Shown in pieces: positions 1,538 to 61,294 of a stretch of DNA of 64,000 bases. Under the pieces are notes generated by a model that was not told the DNA's origin, ran no database searches, and saw only the letters and a list, made by a program, of their open reading frames with translations. The DNA comes from Phorcus lineatus (lineage: Eukaryota; Mollusca; Gastropoda; Trochida; Trochidae): assembly GCA_921293015.1 (NCBI GenBank), contig OV121091.1, forward strand, positions 32,906,839-32,970,838, given 5' to 3'. Positions within the stretch are counted from its first letter, which is position 1, and each line of letters begins with the position of its first letter. Position numbers and translations under genes: made by a program.

Positions 1538-1899
1538 ATGGCAGACTGAGACTAACTTTTTTTGAAGCCTTGACATGTCTATTATGCAAATTTGACTGGT
1601 AACAGTGTATAAACTGGGACGAAATGTGTCATTTTTACATATTTCCATGGGTACCCCCCCTCAGCCACTTATTCTCTGAAGCGTCACACCAAAAGGTGGA
1701 TATCCCCATATCTTTGGTTCTAATTATCATAGAACCATAATCTTGGTATCTAAATGTATGTTTATAAGGTCACTGAATCCATTGACAGACATTTCAGATA
1801 GCTACCATAGGTCATTTGTACGAAATTTTAGGTTTCCATTACAAAAACTCATCATTCATGACTTCGACCGGTCACAATTCTATTTTCTCTTCTCTACAG

Positions 1900-2700
1900 T
1901 TAATGGATATCATTTTATTTTACATTATTTGCACTGATAGTAGAATTATGAGTACCTGTAACCATTTTGTGTACCTATGTGTACTTATAACAAACAAATT
2001 AAGTGTCCAAAAGCAAACCAAGGGACCTACCGTTAATCTACTATCATTGAAATACACCAACTCAGCCTTGGAAATTTTTTTTTCTTCCTCTCTATAGTTA
2101 ATGTATATGATTTTATTTTACATTATTTGCACTGAGAATAGAATCTTGAGTACTTGTAACCCTTTTGTGTACTTATGTGTACTTATAACACATAAATTAA
2201 GTGTCCAAAAGTAAACCAAGGGACCTACCGTTAATCTACTATCATTGAAATACACCAACTGAGCTTTGGAAAAAACTATTTTTTCTTCTCTACAGTGAAT
2301 GTATATCACTTTATTTTACATTATTTGCACTGAGAATAGAATATTGAGTACTTGCAACCCTTTTGTGTACTTATGTGTACTTATAACACATAAATTAAGT
2401 GTCCAAAAGCAAACCAAGGGACCTACCGCTAATCCACTATCATTGAAATACACCAACTCAGCCTTGGTAAAACACTATTTTTTCTTCTCTAAAGTTAATG
2501 TATACTATTTTATTTAACATTATTTGCACTTAGAGTAGAATTATGGATACTTGCAACTCTTTTGTGTATTTGTGTACTTATATCAACCAAGGTTAAGTGT
2601 GCAAAAGCTAACTAAGGGGCCTACAATTAATCTACTATCATTGAAATACACCAAATCAGCCTTGGAAAAAACTCACAATTTTGTATTTTGTTTTACTGTT
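1900..2700 (+). repeat. 198-bp tandem repeat, about four copies
   Basis: The phrase ACATTATTTGCACT recurs at about 1922, 2120, 2318 and 2517, a spacing of 198-199 bases. Each unit also carries TAAATTAAGTGTCCAAAAG and ATCATTGAAATACACCAA. The fourth unit is the most diverged. The array lies wholly inside the left arm and is mirrored in the right arm. Long inverted repeats built from tandem units are a known feature of foldback-type transposons, so this supports but does not prove that reading. Confidence 0.9.
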
Positions 2701-4092: not shown

Positions 4093-6112
4093 ATGATAGA
4101 TATAAAAACCATATCATAGTCATAAGAACATACCGAGTGGAATGATCATATATAAGGATGCGTGGCAAGTAAATGGATGGAAGTTGTTTCTCAGACATTC
4201 TTATCCCACTTGAAGCTGGACTCATCGGATTAGGCTCATTGCAAGGTAATGATGTACTCAGGAACGTGAATTTTAAGATAAAGTGTGTCTTCCTTATGTA
4301 CATATCACTTATAAAAGATCTATAAGGATTTATTTTGCTGTCTATGGTGGACCTGACAGAAACTATTGATAAAGTTGGCTGTCTGCAACTGAATGTCTAT
4401 TGCTGTGAACATGAGTCAAACAATGCAACATGGACACTGTCATGATACCATCAAAAGCCTAGAGTATCATACAATGCATTTCATTTAGCAGGAGGCTCTA
4501 TAGAATACATCTCTGTTCAAATGTCTGTTGTTCTTGTTGCTGATGAGAGACATAGTTCGACTCTTATGGATGGGAAGCTAGAGCCAGTGCGCTCTTCCTA
4601 GAGAGTTGGTCGACATCAAGGCCCCGCAACGTGACAGCTTTGAGGATGATAATGAACGTTGTTGTGGTGTGTGGTGTATAGTGATGTTATTGATGATGAT
4701 GCTCTCTCTTAAAACTAGGATTTTGATAAATTGCTGATGTCCAAAAAGCAGCTGATTCAAACAGTCATATGGAGATTAAAAATGAATAATTTGCAAGAAT
4801 GTACTCCTGTACTACATGCCTGTGATGTGTGTAATGACGGAATTAATACCTATGTGTTATCTTTCTTCTTTGAACCCTTTAAATCCCCAATGATTTAGAA
4901 GTAAAACAGTAAAACAAAATACAAAATTGTGAGTTTTTTCCAAGGCTGATTTGGTGTATTTCAATGATAGTAGATTAATTGTAGGCCCCTTAGTTAGCTT
5001 TTGCACACTTAACCTTGGTTGATATAAGTACACAAATACACAAAAGAGTTGCAAGTATCCATAATTCTACTCTAAGTGCAAATAATGTTAAATAAAATAG
5101 TATACATTAACTTTAGAGAAGAAAAAATAGTGTTTTACCAAGGCTGAGTTGGTGTATTTCAATGATAGTGGATTAGCGGTAGGTCCCTTGGTTTGCTTTT
5201 GGACACTTAATTTATGTGTTATAAGTACACATAAGTACACAAAAGGGTTGCAAGTACTCAATATTCTATTCTCAGTGCAAATAATGTAAAATAAAGTGAT
5301 ATACATTCACTGTAGAGAAGAAAAAATAGTTTTTTCCAAAGCTCAGTTGGTGTATTTCAATGATAGTAGATTAACGGTAGGTCCCTTGGTTTACTTTTGG
5401 ACACTTAATTTATGTGTTATAAGTACACATAAGTACACAAAAGGGTTACAAGTACTCAAGATTCTATTCTCAGTGCAAATAATGTAAAATAAAATCATAT
5501 ACATTAACTATAGAGAGGAAGAAAAAAAAATTTCCAAGGCTGAGTTGGTGTATTTCAATGATAGTAGATTAACGGTAGGTCCCTTGGTTTGCTTTTGGAC
5601 ACTTAATTTGTTTGTTATAAGTACACATAGGTACACAAAATGGTTACAGGTACTCATAATTCTACTATCAGTGCAAATAATGTAAAATAAAATGATATCC
5701 ATTAACTGTAGAGAAGAGAAAATAGAATTGTGACCGGTCGAAGTCATGAATGATGAGTTTTTGTAATGGAAACCTAAAATTTCGTACAAATGACCTATGG
5801 TAGCTATCTGAAATGTCTGTCAATGGATTCAGTGACCTTATAAACATACATTTAGATACCAAGATTATGGTTCTATGATAATTAGAACCAAAGATATGGG
5901 GATATCCACCTTTTGGTGTGACGCTTCAGAGAATAAGTGACTGAGGGGGGTACCCATGGAAATATGTAAAAATGACACATTTCGTCCCAGTTTATACACT
6001 GTTACCAGTCAAATTTGCATAATAGACATGTCAAGGCTTCAAAAAAAGTTAGTCTCAGTCTGCCATGGGGGGGGGGGGGGTGCATGGGGACCCCTCTGGG
6101 CCGGCGGACTAT
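4093..6112 (-). repeat. Right arm of the ~2 kb inverted repeat
   Basis: This is the reverse complement of 1473-3512. The inner end is at ATGATAGA (4093) and the outer end is at GGACTAT (about 6112). I see no target-site duplication outside the arms: the left outer flank and right outer flank do not match. Confidence 0.9.
4905..5700 (-). repeat. Mirrored 198-bp tandem repeat
   Basis: This is the inverted copy of the array at 1900-2700, with the same units in reverse order and orientation. The two arrays look identical unit for unit, so the duplication came after the array formed and diverged. Confidence 0.9.
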
Positions 6113-9412: not shown

Positions 9413-10210
9413 AAAGGAACGTCTCCAACATGACGAACATCTACGTGCTATTGGAATGCATAAAATGGGTTCTACACAACGAGCTGTAGCAATCATGCGT
9501 AATGTGTCACAGTCTGTGATCAGCAGACTGTTAAACCGGTACCAACAAACACACAATGTTGATGATATACCTTGTACAGGTCGTCCTAGAGCCACTACAC
9601 AAGACCAGGGTCGATATATTCGTACAAAGCTCCTGCGAAATCGAACACAAACGGACAATCAGCTTTCTGTAAACTTGTACCAAGTTGAAGGAATTCGAGT
9701 TCCACCACAAACCAAGGCGTGTAGGCAGCGTAGAAATTGGGGTAATCGTCGATGGGCTAGTGTGATGTTCTCAGATGAGTCCAGATTTACTTTTGATTTC
9801 ACTGATAGGCATGTTCGCGTTTGGAGGCGTGTAAATGAGCGTCAAGCTAACGTTGGATACGTTACGGTGTGGGCAGGAATAACCTGCAGAACGGACTTGC
9901 ATATTGTTCAATACCTTAAGCATCACCATATTGTCCATACGCCATGAGTCCTAACCTTTCCCCTATAGAGCATGTCTTGGACATGACCGTAAGACCTGTT
10001 TGTCGACATCAACGTCAACCGACAACACTGAAAAAATTGGCCGTGGCCCTGCAAGAGGAGTGGGTCAGACAAATCGATCATGTTCCGAGGAATAAAAGTT
10101 CAGTCTTCAGTATATTGCTTTCCTCTTCACTTGGTCTGACTGCTGCCAACAATGTATTCATGACTTATTTTAGATCAGAAGCAGCTTGTAACCGTTACGT
10201 TATTGATTAG
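9413..10210 (+). pseudogene. Decayed Tc1/mariner transposase
   Basis: The upstream frame (from about 9413; an internal Met at 9456) reads RLQHDEHLRAIG, then STQRAVA, VISRLLNRY and the GRPRATT linker typical of the paired-type DNA-binding half of Tc1 transposases. The catalytic half begins with FSDESRF, which holds the first Asp of the DDE triad. The central QQDNARPH segment is missing: the first frame stops at 9947 and the family resumes in another frame at 9944 with SPNLSPIEHVLD, followed by a Tc1-like C-terminal tail. The linker before FSDESRF is also shortened. The copy is certainly inactive. I found no convincing terminal inverted repeats around it. Confidence 0.88.
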
Positions 10211-16457: not shown

Positions 16458-17041
16458 TACGGAAGCACCCTAGTGCCACAGTTATTTTTTTTTATCTCCT
16501 AATTAGGACATACTTTCACCTAATTAGGAGATATTAACGCCTAATTAGGAGATAAGTAACCCCTAATTAGGACTTAATTAACACCTAATTAGGAGATAAC
16601 TAAGTACTACTTAGGACATAGCTATTTCCTAATTAGGACTTAATTATTGCTAAATTAGGAGATATATCTCCTAATTAGGAGATGATATCTCCTTATTAGG
16701 TTATACTATCACCTAATTAGGAGAGAGTAACTCCTAATTAGCAGATAGTAACTCCTAATTAGCAGATAGTAACTCCTAATTAGGTGATAATTAAGTCCTA
16801 ATTAGGACTTAGTTATCACCTAATTAGGAGATAACTAAGTCCTAATTAGGACTTAATCATCACCTAATTAGGAGTTACTATCTGCTAATTAGGTGATAAT
16901 AAGTCCTAATTAGGAGATACTAACTCCTAATTAGGTGATTATTATCTCCTAATTAGGCGATGATTAAGACCTAATTAGGTGATGGTATATCCTAATTAGG
17001 GGATAAAACAATTTTGACTGTGGCACTAGGATGCTTCCGTA
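16458..17041. mobile_element. 584-bp inverted-repeat element filled with CTAATTAG palindromes
   Basis: The ends are inverted repeats of about 25 bases starting TACGGAAGCA and continuing CCTAGTGCCACAGT, with one mismatch. They are flanked by a 6-base direct repeat AGACAT (16,452-16,457 and 17,042-17,047), which looks like a target-site duplication; the alternative reading is AAGACAT. The interior, about 16,495-17,001, is a run of short units each centred on the 8-base palindrome CTAATTAG: 21 exact copies and 3 degenerate ones, joined by spacers such as GAGATAA, AGTCC and GTGATAA. No coding capacity. It is a non-autonomous DNA transposon or MITE; the superfamily is not assigned. Confidence 0.88.
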
Positions 17042-25216: not shown

Positions 25217-26697
25217 TCACGGGCAAAAGAAACGGTACCACTTTATAATTGAAATTACGAAAAAAATCAAACTCAAATCAAAACCAACCGCATGAAAACA
25301 CATCGCCCAAATACAACAATGATTGTTTCATATTGAACTGGTATCAAACGCACGCTTTTGCCAAATTTTGTCAAATTATGGTTTTCACCTTTTTCATGCA
25401 AAGCAAAATAGCCCCATGCCCGACGGGCATAAAACCAATGCAAATTGGTTGTCAGACACCAGCTTTGTAAAAAGAACACTTAAAGAATGACAGGATTGAC
25501 AACAACGTGAGCGAGCAATCCGGATGATTGAAATGGAAGCCACCCACATCCACGTTGCAAGAACGCTTGGTGGTCACCATACACCTGTCACAAGACTAAT
25601 GCAACCTTATCGTCATTCGGAACAGACCTCAGACAGACCAAAATCAGGCCGACCAAGAGTCTCAATCCACAAGGACGACCAATCTGCACACGTTACACCT
25701 CAGAAACCGCTGACAGTGACGTCATCGGCGTCGAATGCCCTGGGTCATCGGGTATGCAGACGCACAGTGGCCGGACGTCTAAGGTCCCATGGCACCAGGG
25801 CATACAGACCGTTCCGGGGACAGCTGTTGACAGCCGAACATCGCAAACGAAGACTGAGATTGGCGAGCACGGTTTTATGTTGGCAGCGACGTCAGTGGCA
25901 GAGCGTGCTTTTCTCTGACGAAAGTCGGTTCTTTCTCTTCAAAGCAGATGGAAAAGTACGTGTTTAACGCCGTCGGGGAGAGAAAACCGCTGCATGTTGC
26001 GTTCAGGAAGTGGTGCCCTACGGAGGAGGAAGTGTCATGGTTTGGAGAGGCACACTTGGTTATCGTGAATGGAAATCTAACGGCTCAGCATTGCGTCGAT
26101 GACATTCTCTATCCCGTCGTCTGTTCCTTTCTTCGACAACAGGCACAATGTGTGATCTTTCAACAAGACTATGCCCGAGCGGACACAGCTCGAGTAACAC
26201 AGAACTTCCTTGCTAACAACATCTACGTTTTGTCGTGGCCAGCATGATCGCCTGTCACCGATCGAACATCTTTGAGACGCTTTGGATCGTCTTATTCGTC
26301 AACGACTACCACCTCAAGATAACCTCCAGCAATCTGCTGAAGTTTTCCAAGAAGAATGGCTGCGCATTCCATGTAATGACGTCAGACGTTATATGTTCTC
26401 CATGCGTCGGAGGGTTAATGCGTGTATTGTGGCAAGGGGAGGCCGTACTGTTTTCATCACATTGAACTTGGATTTCCCTGCATCGGGATCAGCCATGACA
26501 GTGAACTTGGACTTTTTGACCCCTATGCCAATATTGCAGACTGTGCCGTTGATACCGGAAGCTGATTTGTTGCATTTTTTATTTATATGATATAGTCACA
26601 TCTTCTTGTTGAATAAACATTTTGTTTTTTAATCTCACTTTTGAATTTATTCTGCACTCTAGATTTAAATACATGGTAGCGTTTCTTTTGCCCGTGA
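25217..26697 (+). mobile_element. Tc1-type element with terminal inverted repeats, decayed
   Basis: Perfect 18-base inverted ends TCACGGGCAAAAGAAACG stand at 25,217-25,234 and 26,680-26,697, and matching continues imperfectly into (G/C)TACCA. The total of about 1.5 kb is normal for a Tc1 element. The interior carries a broken transposase. Confidence 0.9.
25504..26469 (+). pseudogene. Broken Tc1/mariner transposase
   Basis: The N-terminal frame starts about 25,504 with QRERAIRMIEME and an internal Met at 25,524. It carries the GRPRVSIHKDD linker and ends with WQSVLFSDESRFFLF, which holds the first catalytic Asp. A frameshift near 25,950-25,967 moves homology to the next frame, which includes CVIFQQDYARADTARVTQNF; the usual QQDNARPH has N changed to Y and P-H lost. 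That frame stops at 26,247, right where the SPDLSPIEHLWD block should be. A third frame gives a normal-looking tail, LDRLIRQRLPPQDNLQQ and CIVARGG. At least two frameshifts and a stop make it inactive. Confidence 0.93.
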
Positions 26698-36773: not shown

Positions 36774-38340
36774 TTCGTGTATATCAAGAGACTTGCACAT
36801 GTGGTATATGTGTACACCTGTGGTATATGTGTATCACATGATTGAAGATGCTTCAGTGTACTTGTAGATCACCTGCTCTCTTTGAGGTGACTTGGGCTAC
36901 GCCGCTTTCAAGAGTTCTTCACTGCAAAATAACTGCAAGAAGAAAGCTCGCAACGCCATTGTGGCTACGCATTTTGGTGAACCTGTGAGCATCGGCTGGA
37001 ACTAGGTGGAACCTTACTGCATTTAGAAGAGTTCTCTTCTGAAGTCCAAGTTCCCTCAAAGAGATGCTTTTTGAAACGTCTCATGATTATTGTTACCCCA
37101 TTATATAAGCTTCGTTTGAAGGTACGACTTTAACATTAGTGGAGACAGAGGTTTTCTGTTAACGAACGTTACGATTATAATTATTTGTATCTATCGATTC
37201 AGGTTCTGTGTGTCATCTTTTTCACAGTTATTTTCAATTGAAAATTAATCATTGAGAAACACGATAATCTCCGTCCACACAACTCTAGACACAACGCCAA
37301 TTTCAGGTATATCATATCTAAAACTGAATCACGTTGTTTTCACAGCATTATAAAGGGCCTTCCTTATTCTCCATAGCAAAGTGTTTTAGAATGTATATAA
37401 TGAAGATACAGTGCATTTGATTAACATTTGAATAATTGAAAGAAACACTTTTTATCATATAAAATTCTTTATTTTTAATGTATGACATCTCCAAGAATAA
37501 TTGATTGATTATTAAGATTTAACCTATTATTGTTAGTATGTTTAAGAACATAAAGATATAAGCTATTTATATTTACATGTAAATCTTTCGCATATTGCTC
37601 TTCAGGTATTGTATTGTTATCGTTTTCAGCAGGATGAATTATGGATTGATCACATTAACTCCGAAAAGAATCAACAAGCGCTAAAAGTATGCCTTGGCTA
37701 AAACACAATAGTCGAGTGATGTTTAAAAACAACAATACATAACTTTAGTTTTTCAAGAATTACAAGATAATCCTTGTGATTGAGTAATTTATTCAGAAAC
37801 ATAATGTGCTACTTTTCACGATCTTTGAAAATGTCATAGGTACGTGTTTAGTCGAGGACAAAAGTCCAAAGGACAGAAGAAAGCCTTTGCATACAAAAAG
37901 GTTAAGGGATATATGACATCGGCTTTCCTAATCTATTTTCAACTTTTCAAATTGTTATCGTCACAATTCTTATCACCGAATACATCACGCAATAATTGAT
38001 GATCACAATAGAATTATTGATCGATAAAACATCGGGCCAGTGAGTCATTTGTATGATCCATGTAGAAGCATCTCGTAAAACAGACAATTTAAAATATCAA
38101 AAGTTTCTCGCGATAGTTAGCTTAATTAGACTTACATTGTAGATCACAATCTCTGGTTATGATATAAGAAGAAATATATAATATAATAATAATCTCTGTC
38201 TTCTGGGCTGTTGTTTTCGACACTACCCCGTATGAATATATGGCCTTTTTGATTATAATTTTCTTTCGATCAACAACATTTGTTTACAAAACAGTCTAAA
38301 ACCCTCAAAAAGATATTTCACTTGATCAGTTTATTCGGAA
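36774..38340. other. No recognisable gene
   Basis: No supported coding region. GTGGTATATGTGTA is repeated in tandem near 36,799-36,832. Confidence 0.4.
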
Positions 38341-38439: not shown

Positions 38440-38810
38440 GTTCAGCAAATCCATCAGTTGAATGTAACCATCACCTGTGAACAAAATGAGCTGAATGTGA
38501 AACGTGTCGCTTATCAAATACATCCCCTAAAATACCCGATATTTGTTAATCTCACCAAATTGAAGTCCAAACATTCTTGACAAAGTCTATTGAATACAAA
38601 TCTATACCTCTATGCCCTAATAACAATACAAATGTCTATAAGATTTACCCCAGATCCATATATCGGTCGAAAGAGGTCCAAGTAAATACTATAATGTAAC
38701 CCTTAGCAGAGTAATCTTTTGTAAGCCACAATGTAATACTATAAAGATGTGACCGAAGAACCTGGCTTTAACTGCTACTGCTAATTCCTTGAAAAAATTG
38801 TGTCTTTGTT

Positions 38811-39322: not shown

Positions 39323-40724
39323 TTAGTCCGGGTAATCTGCATCACGTCCATCAGATGAGAGTTTGAACTAAAGTCAAAGGATAACTTCACTACTTTAGTT
39401 CCATCATGCACCAAAACATGACCATATCTTAATGAAATTAAATTGAAATAGTCTCTCTTTACATGCTCATTTCTCCCAACCAACCAAATATGTAACAATG
39501 ACGTACTTCAGTGATACATATGTAAATATAATTACAGCTTACAGCTTGGACTGTGTTAAGTGTCTACTTACCATTTCTATCGAGAGATTTTGCGACCATT
39601 GTTGCGAAGTCGATATCTTTCTCTAGTAAATTAACGAATTCCTCTATCGTCATGTATTGCCTGGAAAAGAGAAATTGATATATCGATAGTTTGTCAATTT
39701 CATTTCATAATGATGTATTTAAGTATAATTGCTCATATATGTGAATTACTCCGGTCATACTTATTCGTATGTGATATTTTGATAATATTTTTATGAAACG
39801 AGAGAGTGGATTTTTTTTTATCAAAGGTCGAGGTTGATTATGATACCATTCACGAATGTCTTTTAAAATGTTATCAACTTTAGTGTTTACTCGCTGAATT
39901 ATGTCAAAAACAGCACGAAATAAAAGAGCTACCAGACAAATCTGCAGCACTGCGCAGAAAAACTTAGAAAAGTCAGTCTTACACGTGGAAAGAACAACAT
40001 AAATATATTCCCTCGATATAGAAACAGTAAAAGGGGAACGATAAAAATGAGCACTGCGACTGATAGTCACATGCTTCAAGGTTGAAATTACAAGTTGATT
40101 TTAATATATGATTTGTAATGTCGATATTGCGACTTTCACATTTTCATATTTCTCTTTAGTTAAGCATCAGTTATGAGACATTGATATCAAAACGTGTACT
40201 GACATGATATGAACGACGTTCTACTGCCTCTTTACAATTCTTTAGCAAATTTAAAGCTTTTATTAACTCTTAACGGTTTTTGGAAGATATACTTCTCTGT
40301 ACACCCTATCTATGATATAGCTCTTCTTGCATATTTGTAAATTATTATTCCTTGTACAACTGTGGATTAATATTGTGGAACCATTAATTGATTAATTATG
40401 ATTAATTAGGCGATCATAATACAACGAGAAAATACAACTACATACTAATTTGATCACTTTGACGTAAACTTTTCAAGAATCCATCCAAGAATTCAAAATA
40501 TGAAACAGAACATTTTGAATGTCTTACCTTGATACGGTATTAAGTTCGCTGTCCTCTGTGACCTGTGACCTCTTGCCGTACAGGTAGCCGCCTATTTGAT
40601 ACTTTGCACGAGCGGTCCGGGAACCACGTGTCGCAAGGCGGCGTCCTGATTGGTCGAGAGATCTCCCCTCTGACACATACGCCAAACAAACACATGCAAA
40701 CAGTATAACCGTTGTGTAGCCCAT
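39323..40724 (-). CDS. Neuropeptide prohormone, three coding exons (bombesin/GRP-like layout)
   Basis: Coding exons on the minus strand are 40,724-40,528, 39,660-39,572 and, less surely, 39,336-39,323. Junctions: donor CAAG|GTAAGAC, acceptor CTTTTCCAG|GC, donor AATG|GTAAG, acceptor GCAG|ATTACC; phases 2 and 1 fit. The ATG is in a strong context (CAACAATGG). Predicted product is 99 residues: signal peptide 1-20 (hydrophobic core VILFACVCLAYV), G-R-R at 27-29, then AKYQIGGYLY (40-49) before G50-K51-R52, so a secreted C-terminally amidated decapeptide if cut after R39. Residues 53-99 form an acidic, probably amphipathic tail with EEFVNLL. No cysteines after the signal. The single amidated peptide, monobasic cut and tail resemble bombesin/GRP prohormones; other families are possible. 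An alternative last acceptor at 39,368 changes only the last few residues. Confidence 0.75.
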
Positions 40725-40733
40725 TGTTGATTT

Positions 40734-40738
40734 TCTGA
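40734..40738 (-). other. Splice acceptor in the 5' untranslated region
   Basis: Directly upstream of the neuropeptide start codon the minus strand reads ACTTTTCAG|AAAATCAACAATGG. This is a good acceptor and implies at least one noncoding upstream exon. The exon base after the AG is 40,734. Confidence 0.6.
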
Positions 40739-41907: not shown

Positions 41908-42235
41908 ATGAAAGGTTTTGTTCTTGAATGCGAAGTTTTATCACTTTCATCTTAACATTTTTGTAAAGGTTTTGTTCTTTAAAGCTAAGTTTTATCAGTT
42001 TTATCTTTACATTTCTGTAAAGGTTTTGTTCTATAAACCGAAGTTGTATTAGTTTCATCATTACATTTTTTAAAGGTTTTGTTCTATAAAGCGAAGTTGT
42101 ATCAGTTTCATCATTACATTTGTGTAAAGGTTTTGTTCTATAAAGCGAAGTTGTATTAGTTTCATCATTACATTTTTAAAGGTTTTGTTCTAGAATGCGA
42201 AGTTCACGGTATCAGTTTCATCTTTACATTTTTGT
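41908..42235. repeat. 54-bp tandem repeat, six copies
   Basis: AAAGGTTTTGTTCT recurs at about 41,911, 41,965, 42,019, 42,072, 42,126 and 42,178, spaced 52-54 bases. Each unit continues with GAAGTT-TAT-AGTTTCATC. A minus-strand open frame through it (repeats of FIEQNLY / FKEQNLY) is a product of the near-multiple-of-three period. Confidence 0.9.
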
Positions 42236-52119: not shown

Positions 52120-53240
52120 TATGAAGAAGTTTATGAATACATATTCGTTATCAAAGAGTCACATGAAGAGGCTATGAGGTTACTATTCGTTATCATATGC
52201 ACATGAAGAATCAATGAGGTTACTACTCGTTATCATATGCACATGAAGAATCTATGAGGTTACGATTCGTTATCATATGCACATGAAGAATCTATGAGGT
52301 TACGATTCGTTATTATATGCACATGAAGAATCAATGAGGTTATTATTCGTTATCATATGCTCATGAAGAATCAATGAGGTTATTATTCGTTATCATTTGC
52401 ACATGAAGAATTGATGAGGTTATTATTCGTTATCATATGCACATGAAGAATCAATGAGGTTATTATTCGTTATTATATGCACATGAAGAATCTATGAGGT
52501 TTCTATTCGTTATCATATGCACATGAAGAATCAATGAGGTTATTATTCGTTATCATATGCACATGAAGAATCAATGAGGTTACTACTCGTTATCATATGC
52601 ACATGAAGAATCTATGAGGTTACGATTCGTTATCATATGCACATGAAGAATCTATGAGGTTACGATTCGTTATTATATGCACATGAAGAATCAATGAGGT
52701 TATTATTCGTTATCATATGCTCATGAAGAATCAATGAGGTTATTATTCGTTATCATTTGCACATGAAGAATTGATGAGGTTATTATTCGTTATCATATGC
52801 ACATGAAGAATCAATGAGGTTATTATTCGTTATTATATGCACATGAAGAATCAATGAGGTTTCTATTCGTTATCATATGCACATGAAGAATCAATGAGAT
52901 TATTATTCGTTATCATATGCACATGAAGAATCAATGAGGTTACTACTCGTTATCATATGCACATGAGGAATCTATGAGGTTATTATTCGTTATCATATGC
53001 ACATGAAGAATCAATGAGGTTACGATTCGTTATCATATGCTCATGAAGAATTGATGAGGTTATTATTCGTTATCATATGCACATGAAGAATCAATGAGGT
53101 TATTATTCGTTATCATACGCTCATGAAGAATCAATGAGGTTATTATGCGTTATCATATGCACATGAAGAATCAATGAGGTTACTTCTCGTTATCATATGC
53201 ACATGAAGAATCTATGAGGTTACGATTCGTTATCATATGC
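52120..53240 (+). repeat. 40-bp minisatellite with 360-bp higher-order period
   Basis: About 28 copies of a unit containing ACATGAAGAATCAATGAGG then TTATTCGTTATCATATGC. Variant units recur in order: the TACTACTCG variant at 52,221, 52,581 and 52,941, and the TTCTATTCG variant at 52,501 and 52,861, so nine-unit blocks of 360 bases have been amplified. No coding role; frames are periodic. Confidence 0.97.
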
Positions 53241-53439
53241 ACTACGTAAGAGGTAGCATGTGCATTTGATAGCGAGAAGTACCTACAAAGAATGTTTCAT
53301 AAGCTTAACGAAAACTACCAACTTCTACTATTCCAATTTATACTATTCCTTGTGTATTTGGTAACTTCATCTAATTCTTCCCGTGCTTTCGATAACGAAC
53401 AGTAACTACATGGATTATTTTCAAATGCATTGATTATGA
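53241..53439. other. Hinge between two opposed minisatellites
   Basis: Diverged sequence lies between the 40-bp and 41-bp arrays. Near 53,389-53,450 it holds degenerate units of the second orientation (CGATAACGAACAGTAAC, then GATTATGAATAGTAATGAC). The orientation switch of the repeat falls in this interval. Confidence 0.7.
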
Positions 53440-54061
53440 ATAGTAATGACATAGACGTTTTAATGTACATTAGATGACGAATAGTAATGACATAGACGTT
53501 TTAATGTACATTAGATGACGAATAGTAATGACATAGACGTTTTAATGTACATTAGATGACGAATAGTAATGACATAGACGTTTTAATGTACTTTAGATGA
53601 CGAATAGTAATGACATAGACGTTTTAATGTACATTAGATGACGAATAGTAATGACATAGACGTTTTAATGTACATTAGATGACGAATAGTAATGACATAG
53701 ACGTTTTAATGTACATTAGATGACGAATAGTAATGACATAGACGTTTTAATGTACATTAGATGACGAATAGTAATGACATAGACGTTTTAATGTACATTA
53801 GATGACGAATAGTAATGACATAGACGTTTTAATGTACATTAGATGACGAATAGTAATGACACAGACGTTTTAATGTACATTAGATGACGAATAGTAATGA
53901 CACAGACGTTTTAATGTACATTAGATGACTAATAGTAATGACACAGACGTTTTAATGTACATTAGATGACGAATAGTAATGACATAGACGTTTTAATGTA
54001 CATTAGATGACGAATAGTAATGACATAGACGTTTTAATGTACTTTTAGATGACGAATAGTA
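53440..54061 (+). repeat. 41-bp minisatellite, about 15 copies
   Basis: Units read GATGACGAATAGTAATGAC then ATAGACGTTTTAATGTAC and ATTA, and are nearly identical along the array (a few carry ACAGACG, or ACTTTAG for ACATTAG). The unit aligns at roughly 70 percent with the reverse complement of the 40-bp unit next door (ATAACGAATAATAACC versus ATGACGAATAGTAATG), so the arrays share an ancestor but run in opposite directions. Confidence 0.95.
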
Positions 54062-54970
54062 ATTACTTATAGTTCTGTGCTGTTGATAAAGAATAGTTAC
54101 TGGATAGAATTATTCATGTTAAATCGAGAACGAGTAGTATTTTCATTGAATTCTCCACGTGCTTTTTATAAAGATTTTATGATACATAGAGGTATGTGTC
54201 TTTTCTTGGCAAGCACCTTGTCTACCTCATCGAATGAGGCAGAAATTATATATGACTTTTCTGCTTCACGAGAAGAGACAAGCATGGTATTTTTCAACAA
54301 AATACAAATTTTCTATTCATTTTATGATTTGCAATTTTATGAAAATTTTGAGTCGGCCCCTTAAGATCCCGTCACCCAACCATCAACATGACGTGTCATT
54401 ACATGTCAGGTCATTGTTATCAATCACTAGTTAAGAAATAAAGTTAGCTCTACCCTAATGCGTTTTTGAAATAAAATATAGTTTTGCCCTGAACTATCAT
54501 AGTTAAACCACGAGGACGGTTGACGCCAAAATGATCTTAATGGGAACCATCCTGATTTTGATAGGCTCGAAACAAAAAATAGTGTTTAAATCGCTCACAT
54601 TATTAATCCAAGAACAGCCTAGGGCCCACTACTGGCTATTTCAAGTATAGAACCCAACCCACTAGTTGAAAACGACATCTAGTTTGTTACAGCTTTGATT
54701 ATTTTAGTTTTGCACTTTAACTTTCTCACTTTTTTAATTTTGAATAATATTTATTTCATTATAAATATCATACTCAAACAAACTGAATTACTTACTGAAG
54801 GGGTTGAACTGTAGTACACTTTATCTGGTAGAGACCGTTGACGTAAACCGCCGTCAAAGTGCAACGGGGCGCCGTGACCTGATGTGATGAATAGCATCTA
54901 AATAGAATTCTTCACGTTCTTTTGATAACGAATAGTAACTAAAATAAATTCGTCATGTTCCTTTGTTTAC
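54062..54970 (+). repeat. Scattered degenerate units of the same minisatellite
   Basis: Isolated units such as GATAAAGAATAGTTAC near 54,087 and TTGATAACGAATAGTAAC near 54,923 match the core of the arrays. Between them nothing is recognised; the open frame at 54,077-54,364 has no domain. Confidence 0.6.
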
Positions 54971-59795: not shown

Positions 59796-61294
59796 TCTTC
59801 AAAAAAAGAAACTTGACATTCGTGCGAAATTGATTTTTCGAAACGGGTCAATTTTTTTCATGATACATACCTGTAATTTAAAGAAAGGCTTGCTCAAAAG
59901 TGTAAATCTACCAAAAACAATGGCCCAAAAAGTTTACGTTGTGTTCAGGGAAGAAAACGAGCGAATCGTCCAAATGCATTTTCTGCCAAAGCACGTGCAG
60001 CATGGGATCATGAAGGTTTACAAGCAGACACGTTTGCTTTAGGGGTATAAAAAGCCATATCAGCTGCTGTTCCTTCAGACTACACAACATCGGTACAGCG
60101 ACCTGAAGAATGCCAAGACTGAACAGAGCGCAACGCAACAACGCTATTGGCAGACTGCAAGCAGGAGCGACGCAGCGAGATGTTGCAACACACTTTGGCG
60201 TGTCCAGACAGACCATCTCTTCATTATGGACCCGTTTCAACACCCGAAACAGCGTTGATGATAGGCCAAGGTCAGGCAGACCAAGGGTGACTACTCGGGC
60301 CCAAGATCGGTACATCCGACTGCTCCACCTTCGGGAACGCACCAGGACAGCAACGTCAACAACAACGCAGATACCAGGCCTGCGTCGAATTTCCGACAAA
60401 ACGGTACGCAACAATCTGAGAGAGGCTGGACTTTTTCCACGACGACCGGTTCGACGTCCCGTTTTAACGCAACGTCATCTGGCGGAACGTCTCCAGTGGT
60501 GTCAACAGAGGATGAGATGGGCACGTGCAAGGTGGAGAACCGTTCTCTTCACTGATGGGTCCCGTTTTCTGCTTCGACGAGCACGTGTATACCGACGTCA
60601 TGTAGAACGTTATGCTGCCAACTGTGTTCAGGAGGTTGTCCCATTTGGAGGTGGGAGTGTCATGGGGTGGGCCGGGATTCGTCACGGTGTTAGGACACCC
60701 CTTGTGCATGTTGTGGGTAACCTCACAGGAGTACGGTATAGGGACTTGATCCTACAGCCTTACGTTATTCCTCACGTCAACGTTCATGGTGGTCTCTTTC
60801 AGCAGGACAATGCTCGACCACATGTTGCACGTGTTTGTCAAGACTTTTTACAGCGTAACAATGTCCAGACATTGCCATGGCCAGCCAGGTCACCAGATTT
60901 GTCACCAATTGAGCATCTCTGGGACGAACTGGATCGACGCGTGCGCAGTAGGAATCCACCACCCCAATCACTTCCAGGACTTCTTGCAGCACTTCAGCAC
61001 GAATGGCAGATCATTCCACAGGCTGTGATTGACAACTTGATTGCATCCATGGGTCGTCGGTGCCAAGCAATAATCAATGCCAATGGTGGCCATACCCGAT
61101 ACTAACATTTGTGCACCCCTGTGATGTTGAAACACTTGTGCACCTGTGCATTTCAAGATCATGCTTATTCTGAATAAAATTTACTGAACAGAGATCTTCA
61201 AACAGCGTTTTAGTTTTCATTTCAATGTTTAACTTACATCTGTGGTCTTTATATTGAACTTTGAAAGTCAGTGTCAAGTTTCTTTTTTTGAAGA
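59796..61294 (+). mobile_element. Complete Tc1-type transposon, about 1.5 kb
   Basis: Perfect 23-base inverted ends beginning TCTTCAAAAAAAGAAACTTG lie at 59,796-59,818 and 61,272-61,294. TA-rich flanks (ATATAAAC at the left, AATATATATA at the right) fit the TA target preference of the family. One open transposase gene fills most of the interior. The identical ends and unbroken frame make it the youngest transposon here. Confidence 0.93.
60110..61105 (+). CDS. Tc1/mariner transposase, open frame of 331 codons
   Basis: The protein cuts and pastes its own element in the nucleus by a DDE reaction. The N-terminal half holds helix-turn-helix segments (about 10-45, including RDVATHFGVSRQTIS) and the GRPR linker at 56-59. 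The catalytic residues are readable as D149 (FTDGSRF), D233 (QQDNARPH) and E268 (SPDLSPIEHLWD), with 34 residues between the last two, the DD34E signature of Tc1. Two oddities: the first block reads TDGSRF where the family usually has TDESRF, and the stretch after it (LLRRARVYRR) seems four or five residues shorter than usual, so the enzyme may be weak or dead despite the open frame. The length is close to the family norm of about 340. The start is the first Met after an upstream stop. Confidence 0.95.
   Translation: MPRLNRAQRNNAIGRLQAGATQRDVATHFGVSRQTISSLWTRFNTRNSVDDRPRSGRPRVTTRAQDRYIRLLHLRERTRTATSTTTQIPGLRRISDKTVRNNLREAGLFPRRPVRRPVLTQRHLAERLQWCQQRMRWARARWRTVLFTDGSRFLLRRARVYRRHVERYAANCVQEVVPFGGGSVMGWAGIRHGVRTPLVHVVGNLTGVRYRDLILQPYVIPHVNVHGGLFQQDNARPHVARVCQDFLQRNNVQTLPWPARSPDLSPIEHLWDELDRRVRSRNPPPQSLPGLLAALQHEWQIIPQAVIDNLIASMGRRCQAIINANGGHTRY

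What the first reader, a model, noticed from the sequence alone, without database searches (positions are those of the whole stretch)
39323..40724. Spliced neuropeptide gene with an amidated peptide ending GGYLY
This is the only host gene I can support. The sequence shows a signal peptide, one clear amidation-cleavage site (Gly-Lys-Arg after AKYQIGGYLY), two clean intron junctions with matching phases, and an acidic helical tail. I do not recognise the peptide as a standard invertebrate family such as FMRFamide, RYamide, NPF, tachykinin or allatostatin.
Basis: partly seen in the sequence, partly recalled or inferred. Interest (0 to 1): 0.85.

Follow-up and report, generated by a model that had tools for sequence, protein, structure and literature searches.

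The report
Snail-type neuropeptide gene with EF-hand
A mollusc gene appears to encode an unrecognised amidated neuropeptide followed by a small calcium-binding (EF-hand) tail, an arrangement also found in the snail pleurin/HCS2 genes.

Summary
The gene looks real, but its end was misread. It lies on the minus strand of a 958-Mb genome that looks molluscan (APGWamide precursor; mitochondrial gene order). Exon 1 (40724-40528), intron 1 and exon 2 (39660-39572) stand as described, with splice sites in the top 0.3% of the window. A stronger in-phase acceptor at 38474 (top 0.4%) turns the 'acidic helical tail' into an EF-hand loop, DRNGDGYIQLMD, and the protein ends at 107 residues. Of 6419 AG sites in the window only this one continues an EF-hand loop in that phase. 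Best reading: a prohormone giving AKYQIGGYLY-amide plus an EF-hand tail. The parallel is pleurin/HCS2: this genome's pleurin gene, on the same contig, has an EF-hand tail split at the same codon. That intron also occurs in calmodulin-like genes here (8 of 30 loci), so it does not prove kinship, and the peptide lacks pleurin's PRX-amide. Text searches for GGYLY gave no neuropeptide paper by title. No transcript or relative could be tested.

The parts
40665..40724 (-). predicted signal peptide, MGYTTVILFACVCLAYVSEG (cleavage after S-E-G inferred by the small-residue rule; SignalP not run)
40528..40724 (-). coding exon 1 (197 nt, GC 0.52 against 0.31 and 0.33 in the introns); ends in phase 2 at AAG|GTAAGA
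40734..40735 (-). possible 3' splice site ten bases before the ATG (CTTTTCAG|AAAATCAACAATG), pointing to an upstream non-coding exon; moderate score (top 3.5%)
40608..40619 (-). R-T-A-R, furin/prohormone-convertase type cleavage site before the peptide (motif recalled)
   Evidence: translation
40578..40607 (-). predicted mature peptide AKYQIGGYLY-amide (MH+ 1174.63)
40569..40577 (-). G-K-R amidation and cleavage site
39661..40527 (-). intron 1, 867 nt, phase 2
39572..39660 (-). coding exon 2 (89 nt, GC 0.37): ...QYMTIEEFVNLLEKDIDFATMVAKSLDRN + first base of the Gly codon; incoming helix and first part of the EF-hand loop
38475..39571 (-). intron 2, 1097 nt, phase 1, splitting the Gly-4 codon of the EF-hand loop
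38437..38474 (-). coding exon 3 (38 nt, GC 0.40) GDGYIQLMDLLN-stop; rest of the EF-hand loop; stop TGA 38439-38437
38330..38335 (-). AATAAA, possible polyadenylation signal about 100 nt after the stop

Best explanation
A nuclear mollusc gene for a secreted neuropeptide precursor of 107 residues. Proposed path: the signal peptide takes it into the secretory pathway; convertases cut at R-T-A-R|A and at GKR, and the exposed Gly is turned into an amide, giving AKYQIGGYLY-amide (longer forms are possible), which would act on a G-protein-coupled receptor of neighbouring or distant cells. The C-terminal 40 or so residues form a single EF-hand. In the calcium-rich, acidic lumen of secretory granules such a tail could bind calcium and help fold, aggregate or sort the precursor, as neurophysin and granin segments do for other prohormones (recalled). 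Shown: reading frames, splice signals, phases, the cleavage sites as sequence, the EF-hand loop, no second copy found. Inferred: expression, cleavage, amidation, receptor, role of the EF-hand.
For: Splice sites in the top 0.12-0.4% of the window with matching phases. Exons 2 and 3 join to a canonical EF-hand loop (D1, N3, D5, G6, I8, D12); 1 of 6419 AG sites in the window does this in that phase. Pfam EF-hand_1 E=0.0046 and EF-hand_6 E=0.0059 (both below Pfam's own cut-off); the 43-residue tail against the PDB gives calcium-binding proteins from whole-sequence E=5e-4 (the best single stretch of that top hit is weak, E about 3). 1 of 23 signal-peptide-like frames in the window also has an amidation-type site and a strong donor; 0 of 60 random strands do. 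Exon 1 GC 0.52 against 0.31 and 0.33 in introns. The precursor pattern exists in the same genome: the pleurin gene at C17:15123673 has amidation-type YPRI/FPRI peptides and, across an intron (donor top 0.9%, acceptor above practically every AG site of the window), DTNG|DDILSREEF. [quoted passage not shown]
Against: No transcript, peptide or orthologue was available; all is from one genome. Only two exon matches were found in the whole genome, both this gene, so there is no paralogue to show conservation. Pfam EF-hand scores are below the curated cut-offs. Exons 2 and 3 are only slightly richer in GC than the introns. A signal-like start plus G[KR][KR] alone arises about once in eight random 64-kb strands. 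One EF-hand alone is unusual, as they mostly pair (recalled). Neuropeptide status rests on short motifs.
Confidence: 0.72

Rival explanations
1. A diverged paralogue of pleurin/HCS2 (a narrower form of the best explanation, not exclusive of it): the same EF-hand-tailed precursor lineage, in which the PRX-amide peptide was replaced by GGYLY-amide.
For: Same overall plan and the same phase-1 intron in Gly-4 of the EF-hand loop as the pleurin gene of this genome; both on contig C17, 17.8 Mb apart, a contig holding about 5% of the genome. Thiel 2021 reports a single intron of similar position and phase in the four pleurin genes compared, and proposes an ancestral single peptide copy; nemertean and brachiopod precursors have it directly after the signal peptide (passages).
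Against: No PRX-amide. Two coding introns, not one. The tails align no better than shuffles (59 of 1000 shuffles score as high). The shared intron position also occurs in calmodulin-like genes of this genome (8 of 30 loci), so it may be inherited from the EF-hand superfamily.
Confidence: 0.35
2. A small secreted calcium-binding protein whose G-K-R is incidental; no peptide is released.
For: An EF-hand loop in a protein with a signal-peptide-like start.
Against: The R-T-A-R ... G-K-R frame around a short aromatic C-terminus is the standard amidated-peptide layout; a second GRR site and a basic-rich spacer precede it; a single EF-hand is a poor stand-alone calcium protein (recalled).
Confidence: 0.17
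3. One reading: same exons 1 and 2 but a 14-nt third exon at 39336-39323 ending DYPD, or read-through of exon 2 to LDRNGK-stop.
For: Both frames are open.
Against: Acceptor at 39336 is ordinary (top 32%); read-through ignores a strong donor; the 38474 acceptor completes an EF-hand.
Confidence: 0.05
4. Chance assembly of frames or a decayed pseudogene.
For: No relatives testable; the window holds transposase frames and many tandem arrays.
Against: Four strong splice signals in phase plus an EF-hand across the junction; no internal stop in the 324-nt frame.
Confidence: 0.06

Closest known systems
Pleurin / HCS2 precursors of molluscs (Helix, Aplysia, Deroceras, Lottia; also nemerteans and brachiopods)
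   Same: Signal peptide, amidated peptide(s), and, in the Helix gene by its title and in this genome's pleurin, a C-terminal EF-hand; in this genome's pleurin the loop is split by a phase-1 intron in the same Gly codon.
   Different: Pleurin peptides end in PRI/PRV/PRF-amide and the gastropod precursors described hold 3-4 copies; here one peptide, GGYLY-amide, and an extra phase-2 intron.
Nucleobindin-2 / nesfatin-1 precursors
   Same: Secreted precursor with EF-hand motifs and dibasic sites (PMC9004410 passages).
   Different: Nesfatin-1 is an 82-residue N-terminal peptide, not a short amidated one (recalled), in a much longer protein; no resemblance turned up.
HFAamide (lophotrochozoan family)
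   Same: Peptide followed by GKR in a short precursor.
   Different: This genome has a separate frame ending HFA-GKR: cysteine-rich...CNGFHFA-GKR, no EF-hand in the exon read (L026). Filing that one as HFAamide rests on the motif name alone.
Calmodulin-like EF-hand genes of the same genome
   Same: Same intron position in an EF-hand loop (8 of 30 loci).
   Different: No peptide exon known; their matches span pairs of EF-hands. Whether they have signal peptides was not examined.

Membership tests
Amidated neuropeptide precursor (general) | signal peptide, basic cleavage sites, Gly before a dibasic site | tested here: met
   (motif level; SignalP not run)
Amidated neuropeptide precursor (general) | expression in neurons and release of the amidated peptide | not testable with these tools
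   no RNA or peptide data held
Pleurin/HCS2 | peptide ending PRX-amide | tested here: not met
   ends GGYLY-amide; pleurin peptides
Pleurin/HCS2 | C-terminal EF-hand motif region | tested here: met
   own-genome pleurin
Pleurin/HCS2 | single intron of conserved position and phase (PMC8557429 passage) | tested here: not met
   two coding introns here; the second matches the intron of this genome's pleurin
EF-hand | loop with acidic/oxygen residues at 1, 3, 5, 12, Gly at 6, hydrophobic at 8 (pattern recalled) | tested here: met
   DRNGDGYIQLMD, residues 93-104; Asp, not Glu, at 12
EF-hand | Pfam gathering score | tested here: not met
   16.8 bits against 25.4 (EF-hand_1) and 16.7 against 25 (EF-hand_6)
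NPY/NPF | C-terminal R-F/Y-amide with an intron inside that Arg codon (PMC4200219 passage) | tested here: not met
   no Arg there and no intron within the peptide
Bombesin | Pfam PF02044 match | tested here: inconclusive
   no match in this genome, but the control rang in no genome either; not among the Pfam hits of the protein
HFAamide | peptide ending HFA-amide | tested here: not met
   ends GGYLY; separate candidate at C17:4101399
PXRX family | four Cys and P[FM]R[WY] | tested here: not met
   section 11 of PMC6425005 read; the only Cys are residues 11 and 13, in the signal peptide, and the motif is absent

The most novel reading that the evidence does not exclude
Molluscs have a class of prohormones in which unrelated amidated peptides are carried on a calmodulin-type EF-hand tail that retains the old EF-hand intron. 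Pleurin and this GGYLY-amide precursor would be two members, and the tail would work as a calcium-dependent granule-sorting module, a counterpart of neurophysin built from another fold.
Probability: 0.3. Interest if true: 0.65.

Novelty: new variant of a known kind. Interest (0 to 1): 0.48.

Why it matters
New amidated peptides are found often in mollusc surveys, so the peptide alone would be ordinary. A second peptide type on an EF-hand tail would make the tail a shared module rather than a quirk of pleurin, and the question whether prohormone tails act as calcium-driven sorting devices could then be tested with two genes in one animal. It also adds a ligand candidate for unpaired mollusc receptors.

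Tried and rejected
Paralogues: the 99-residue and then the corrected sequence found only their own exons in the whole genome. Viral and prokaryote collections, exon 1 as query: 87 and 593 stretches matched a pattern, none was confirmed, as expected for an animal gene. Rfam: 0 matches at gathering scores. Bombesin/GRP, considered because both end G-x-L-x-amide (recalled): Pfam model silent but uninformative. HFAamide, considered as another lophotrochozoan family: this genome has a separate frame ending HFA-GKR. Pleurin as a straight identification: rejected on the peptide motif, kept as a rival for descent. Intron position as proof of kinship with pleurin: weakened by the calmodulin-like control. 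Tail alignment with pleurin: not significant. First pleurin probe, from the scallop peptide, found nothing; slug peptides did. My first regular expression for whole EF-hand loops was off by one place and would miss most loops; the mended one finds 0 whole loops in the unspliced window and at least one in 28 of 30 EF-hand control loci. Papers: GGYLY, YLYGKR, YLYamide and similar (7 papers listed, none with a neuropeptide title; not opened), LYGKR with neuropeptide (0), YLYa with neuropeptide and mollus (1, a conotoxin paper, not opened). Supplementary files could not be searched, so the gene may be listed in one.

Full report
WHERE IT IS. The window is G000:C17:32906839-32970838 of a 957.8-Mb genome in 74 contigs. 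The contig C74 (19,115 bp) is mitochondrial: COX1 is read through 13 TGA codons, and the open frames under code 5 run atp6, cox2, cox1, nad2, nad3, cox3 on one strand and nad1, nad6, cob, nad4L, nad4, nad5 on the other (genes other than cox1 named by me from the translations). From recall, this is the ancestral molluscan arrangement, seen in vetigastropods, neritimorphs, chitons and octopods. An APGWamide precursor is present. I take it as a mollusc, probably a gastropod; the species is not established.

THE OBSERVATION. The gene is on the minus strand. Exon 1 (40724-40528) encodes MGYTTVILFACVCLAYVSEG-RSLDQSGRR-LATRGSRTAR-AKYQIGGYLY-GKR-SQVTEDSELNTVS. Donor, acceptor and second donor rank in the top 0.12%, 0.17% and 0.29% of the GT or AG sites of the window, by weight matrices typed from general knowledge, and the phases match. 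In a scan of both strands, 23 ATG frames were signal-peptide-like; 1 of 23 also had G[KR][KR], and that one had a strong donor. Random strands gave the first two features 0.12 times each on average and all three in 0 of 60. The thresholds were chosen with the gene in view, so the figures show rarity, not a formal P value.

THE CORRECTION. Listing acceptors downstream showed one at 38474, TTTTGTTCACAG|G, in the top 0.4%, in phase, that continues ...SLDRN with GDGYIQLMDLLN-stop. The joined loop DRNGDGYIQLMD has the EF-hand pattern. Of 6419 AG sites in the window only this one gives such a continuation in that phase. The complete frame is 324 nt, 107 residues, with introns of 867 and 1097 nt; exon 1 has GC 0.52 against 0.31 and 0.33 in the introns, exons 2 and 3 only 0.37 and 0.40. 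An AATAAA follows about 100 nt after the stop. Pfam gives EF-hand_1 at E=0.0046 and EF-hand_6 at 0.0059, both under the curated cut-off; phmmer of the tail against the PDB finds calcium-binding proteins from whole-sequence E=5e-4, though the best single stretch of the top hit is weak. A regular expression that finds a whole EF-hand loop in 28 of 30 control loci finds none in any unspliced frame of the window, so exons 2 and 3 are not the edge of an obvious larger EF-hand gene within it.

WHAT IT RESEMBLES. [quoted passage not shown] seen in reference lists; that it is called HCS2 is recalled, the name being seen only in another reference title). The oyster paper states that the Aplysia counterpart of this snail precursor was named pleurin (passage). 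With slug pleurin peptides I found a pleurin gene in this genome at C17:15123673-15123864, E=8e-12. Its frame carries DNDYPRI-GRR, SYPRI-GR and SFPRI-GR peptides, then ILFFAWDTNG; a donor (top 0.9%) and an acceptor above practically every AG site of the window join it to DDILSREEFVNGIANARKRRD-stop. So this genome's pleurin also ends in an EF-hand, and the intron cuts the same Gly codon in the same phase as in the window gene. Pfam EF-hand_6 on the joined pleurin protein is E=0.015, again below the cut-off.

HOW MUCH THAT PROVES. Less than it seems. Among 30 EF-hand loci fetched from this genome (the best of 148 matches listed; many are one cluster on C7), 8 have a donor at the same Gly codon. 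The position may come from the EF-hand superfamily. The two tails align no better than shuffles (59 of 1000). Both genes lie on C17, which is about 5% of the genome, a weak hint. The peptide lacks PRX-amide and there is an extra intron. I therefore do not call it a pleurin; I say it is built like one.

HOW IT PROBABLY WORKS. Secretion, cutting at R-T-A-R and GKR, amidation, and receptor activation by AKYQIGGYLY-amide are inferred from the layout. The EF-hand tail, in a calcium-rich granule, could promote folding, aggregation or sorting. That is by analogy with neurophysin and granins (general knowledge) and is untested.

NOVELTY. String searches of the paper library for GGYLY and like terms gave no neuropeptide paper by title. 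String searches inside the main texts of eight mollusc or lophotrochozoan neuropeptide papers (PMC8398477, PMC5996578, PMC6523705, PMC8270824, PMC3890597, PMC8557429, PMC4200219, PMC6425005) showed no such peptide; of these I saw passages, and one whole section of PMC6425005. Novel peptides on new precursors are common; the EF-hand tail with a non-PRX peptide is the less usual part.

LIMITS. One genome, no RNA, no peptide data, no relatives held. Signal-peptide and convertase sites are by rule of thumb.

Noticed in passing
G000:C17:4101399-4101415 (L026): A separate cysteine-rich frame with signal-like start ending ...VCKCNGFHFA-GKR, probably this species' HFAamide gene, on the same contig.
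   Followed up: partly
L010 (G000:C17:15122173-15125364): A pleurin gene of this genome: three PRI peptides before G-R sites and a C-terminal EF-hand split by an intron.
   Followed up: yes
G000:C7:4.13-4.58 Mb: A large cluster of calmodulin-like EF-hand genes, dozens of exon matches in under 0.5 Mb.
   Followed up: no
L004:6300-9200 (mitochondrial contig C74): About 2.8 kb of a short simple repeat in the mitochondrial contig, read as alternating Met-Tyr in several frames.
   Followed up: no
window 60110-61105, 25524-25967, 9456-9947: Tc1/mariner-type transposase frames on the plus strand: the first is 331 aa (Pfam DDE_3, HTH_Tnp_Tc3_2), the second a piece with HTH_Tnp_Tc3_2; the third looks alike by eye but its frame gave no Pfam match at E 0.01.
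   Followed up: partly
window 1876-2673 and 4932-5725: Two four-copy arrays of a 198-bp unit that appear to share sequence in opposite orientation, like the ends of one mobile element (judged from the printed units).
   Followed up: no
window 52142-53242, 53438-54063, 16492-17006, 41911-42235: Tandem arrays: 40 bp x 27.5, 41 bp x 15 (98% matches), a 21-bp unit holding the palindrome CTCCTAATTAGGAG, and 54 bp x 6.
   Followed up: no
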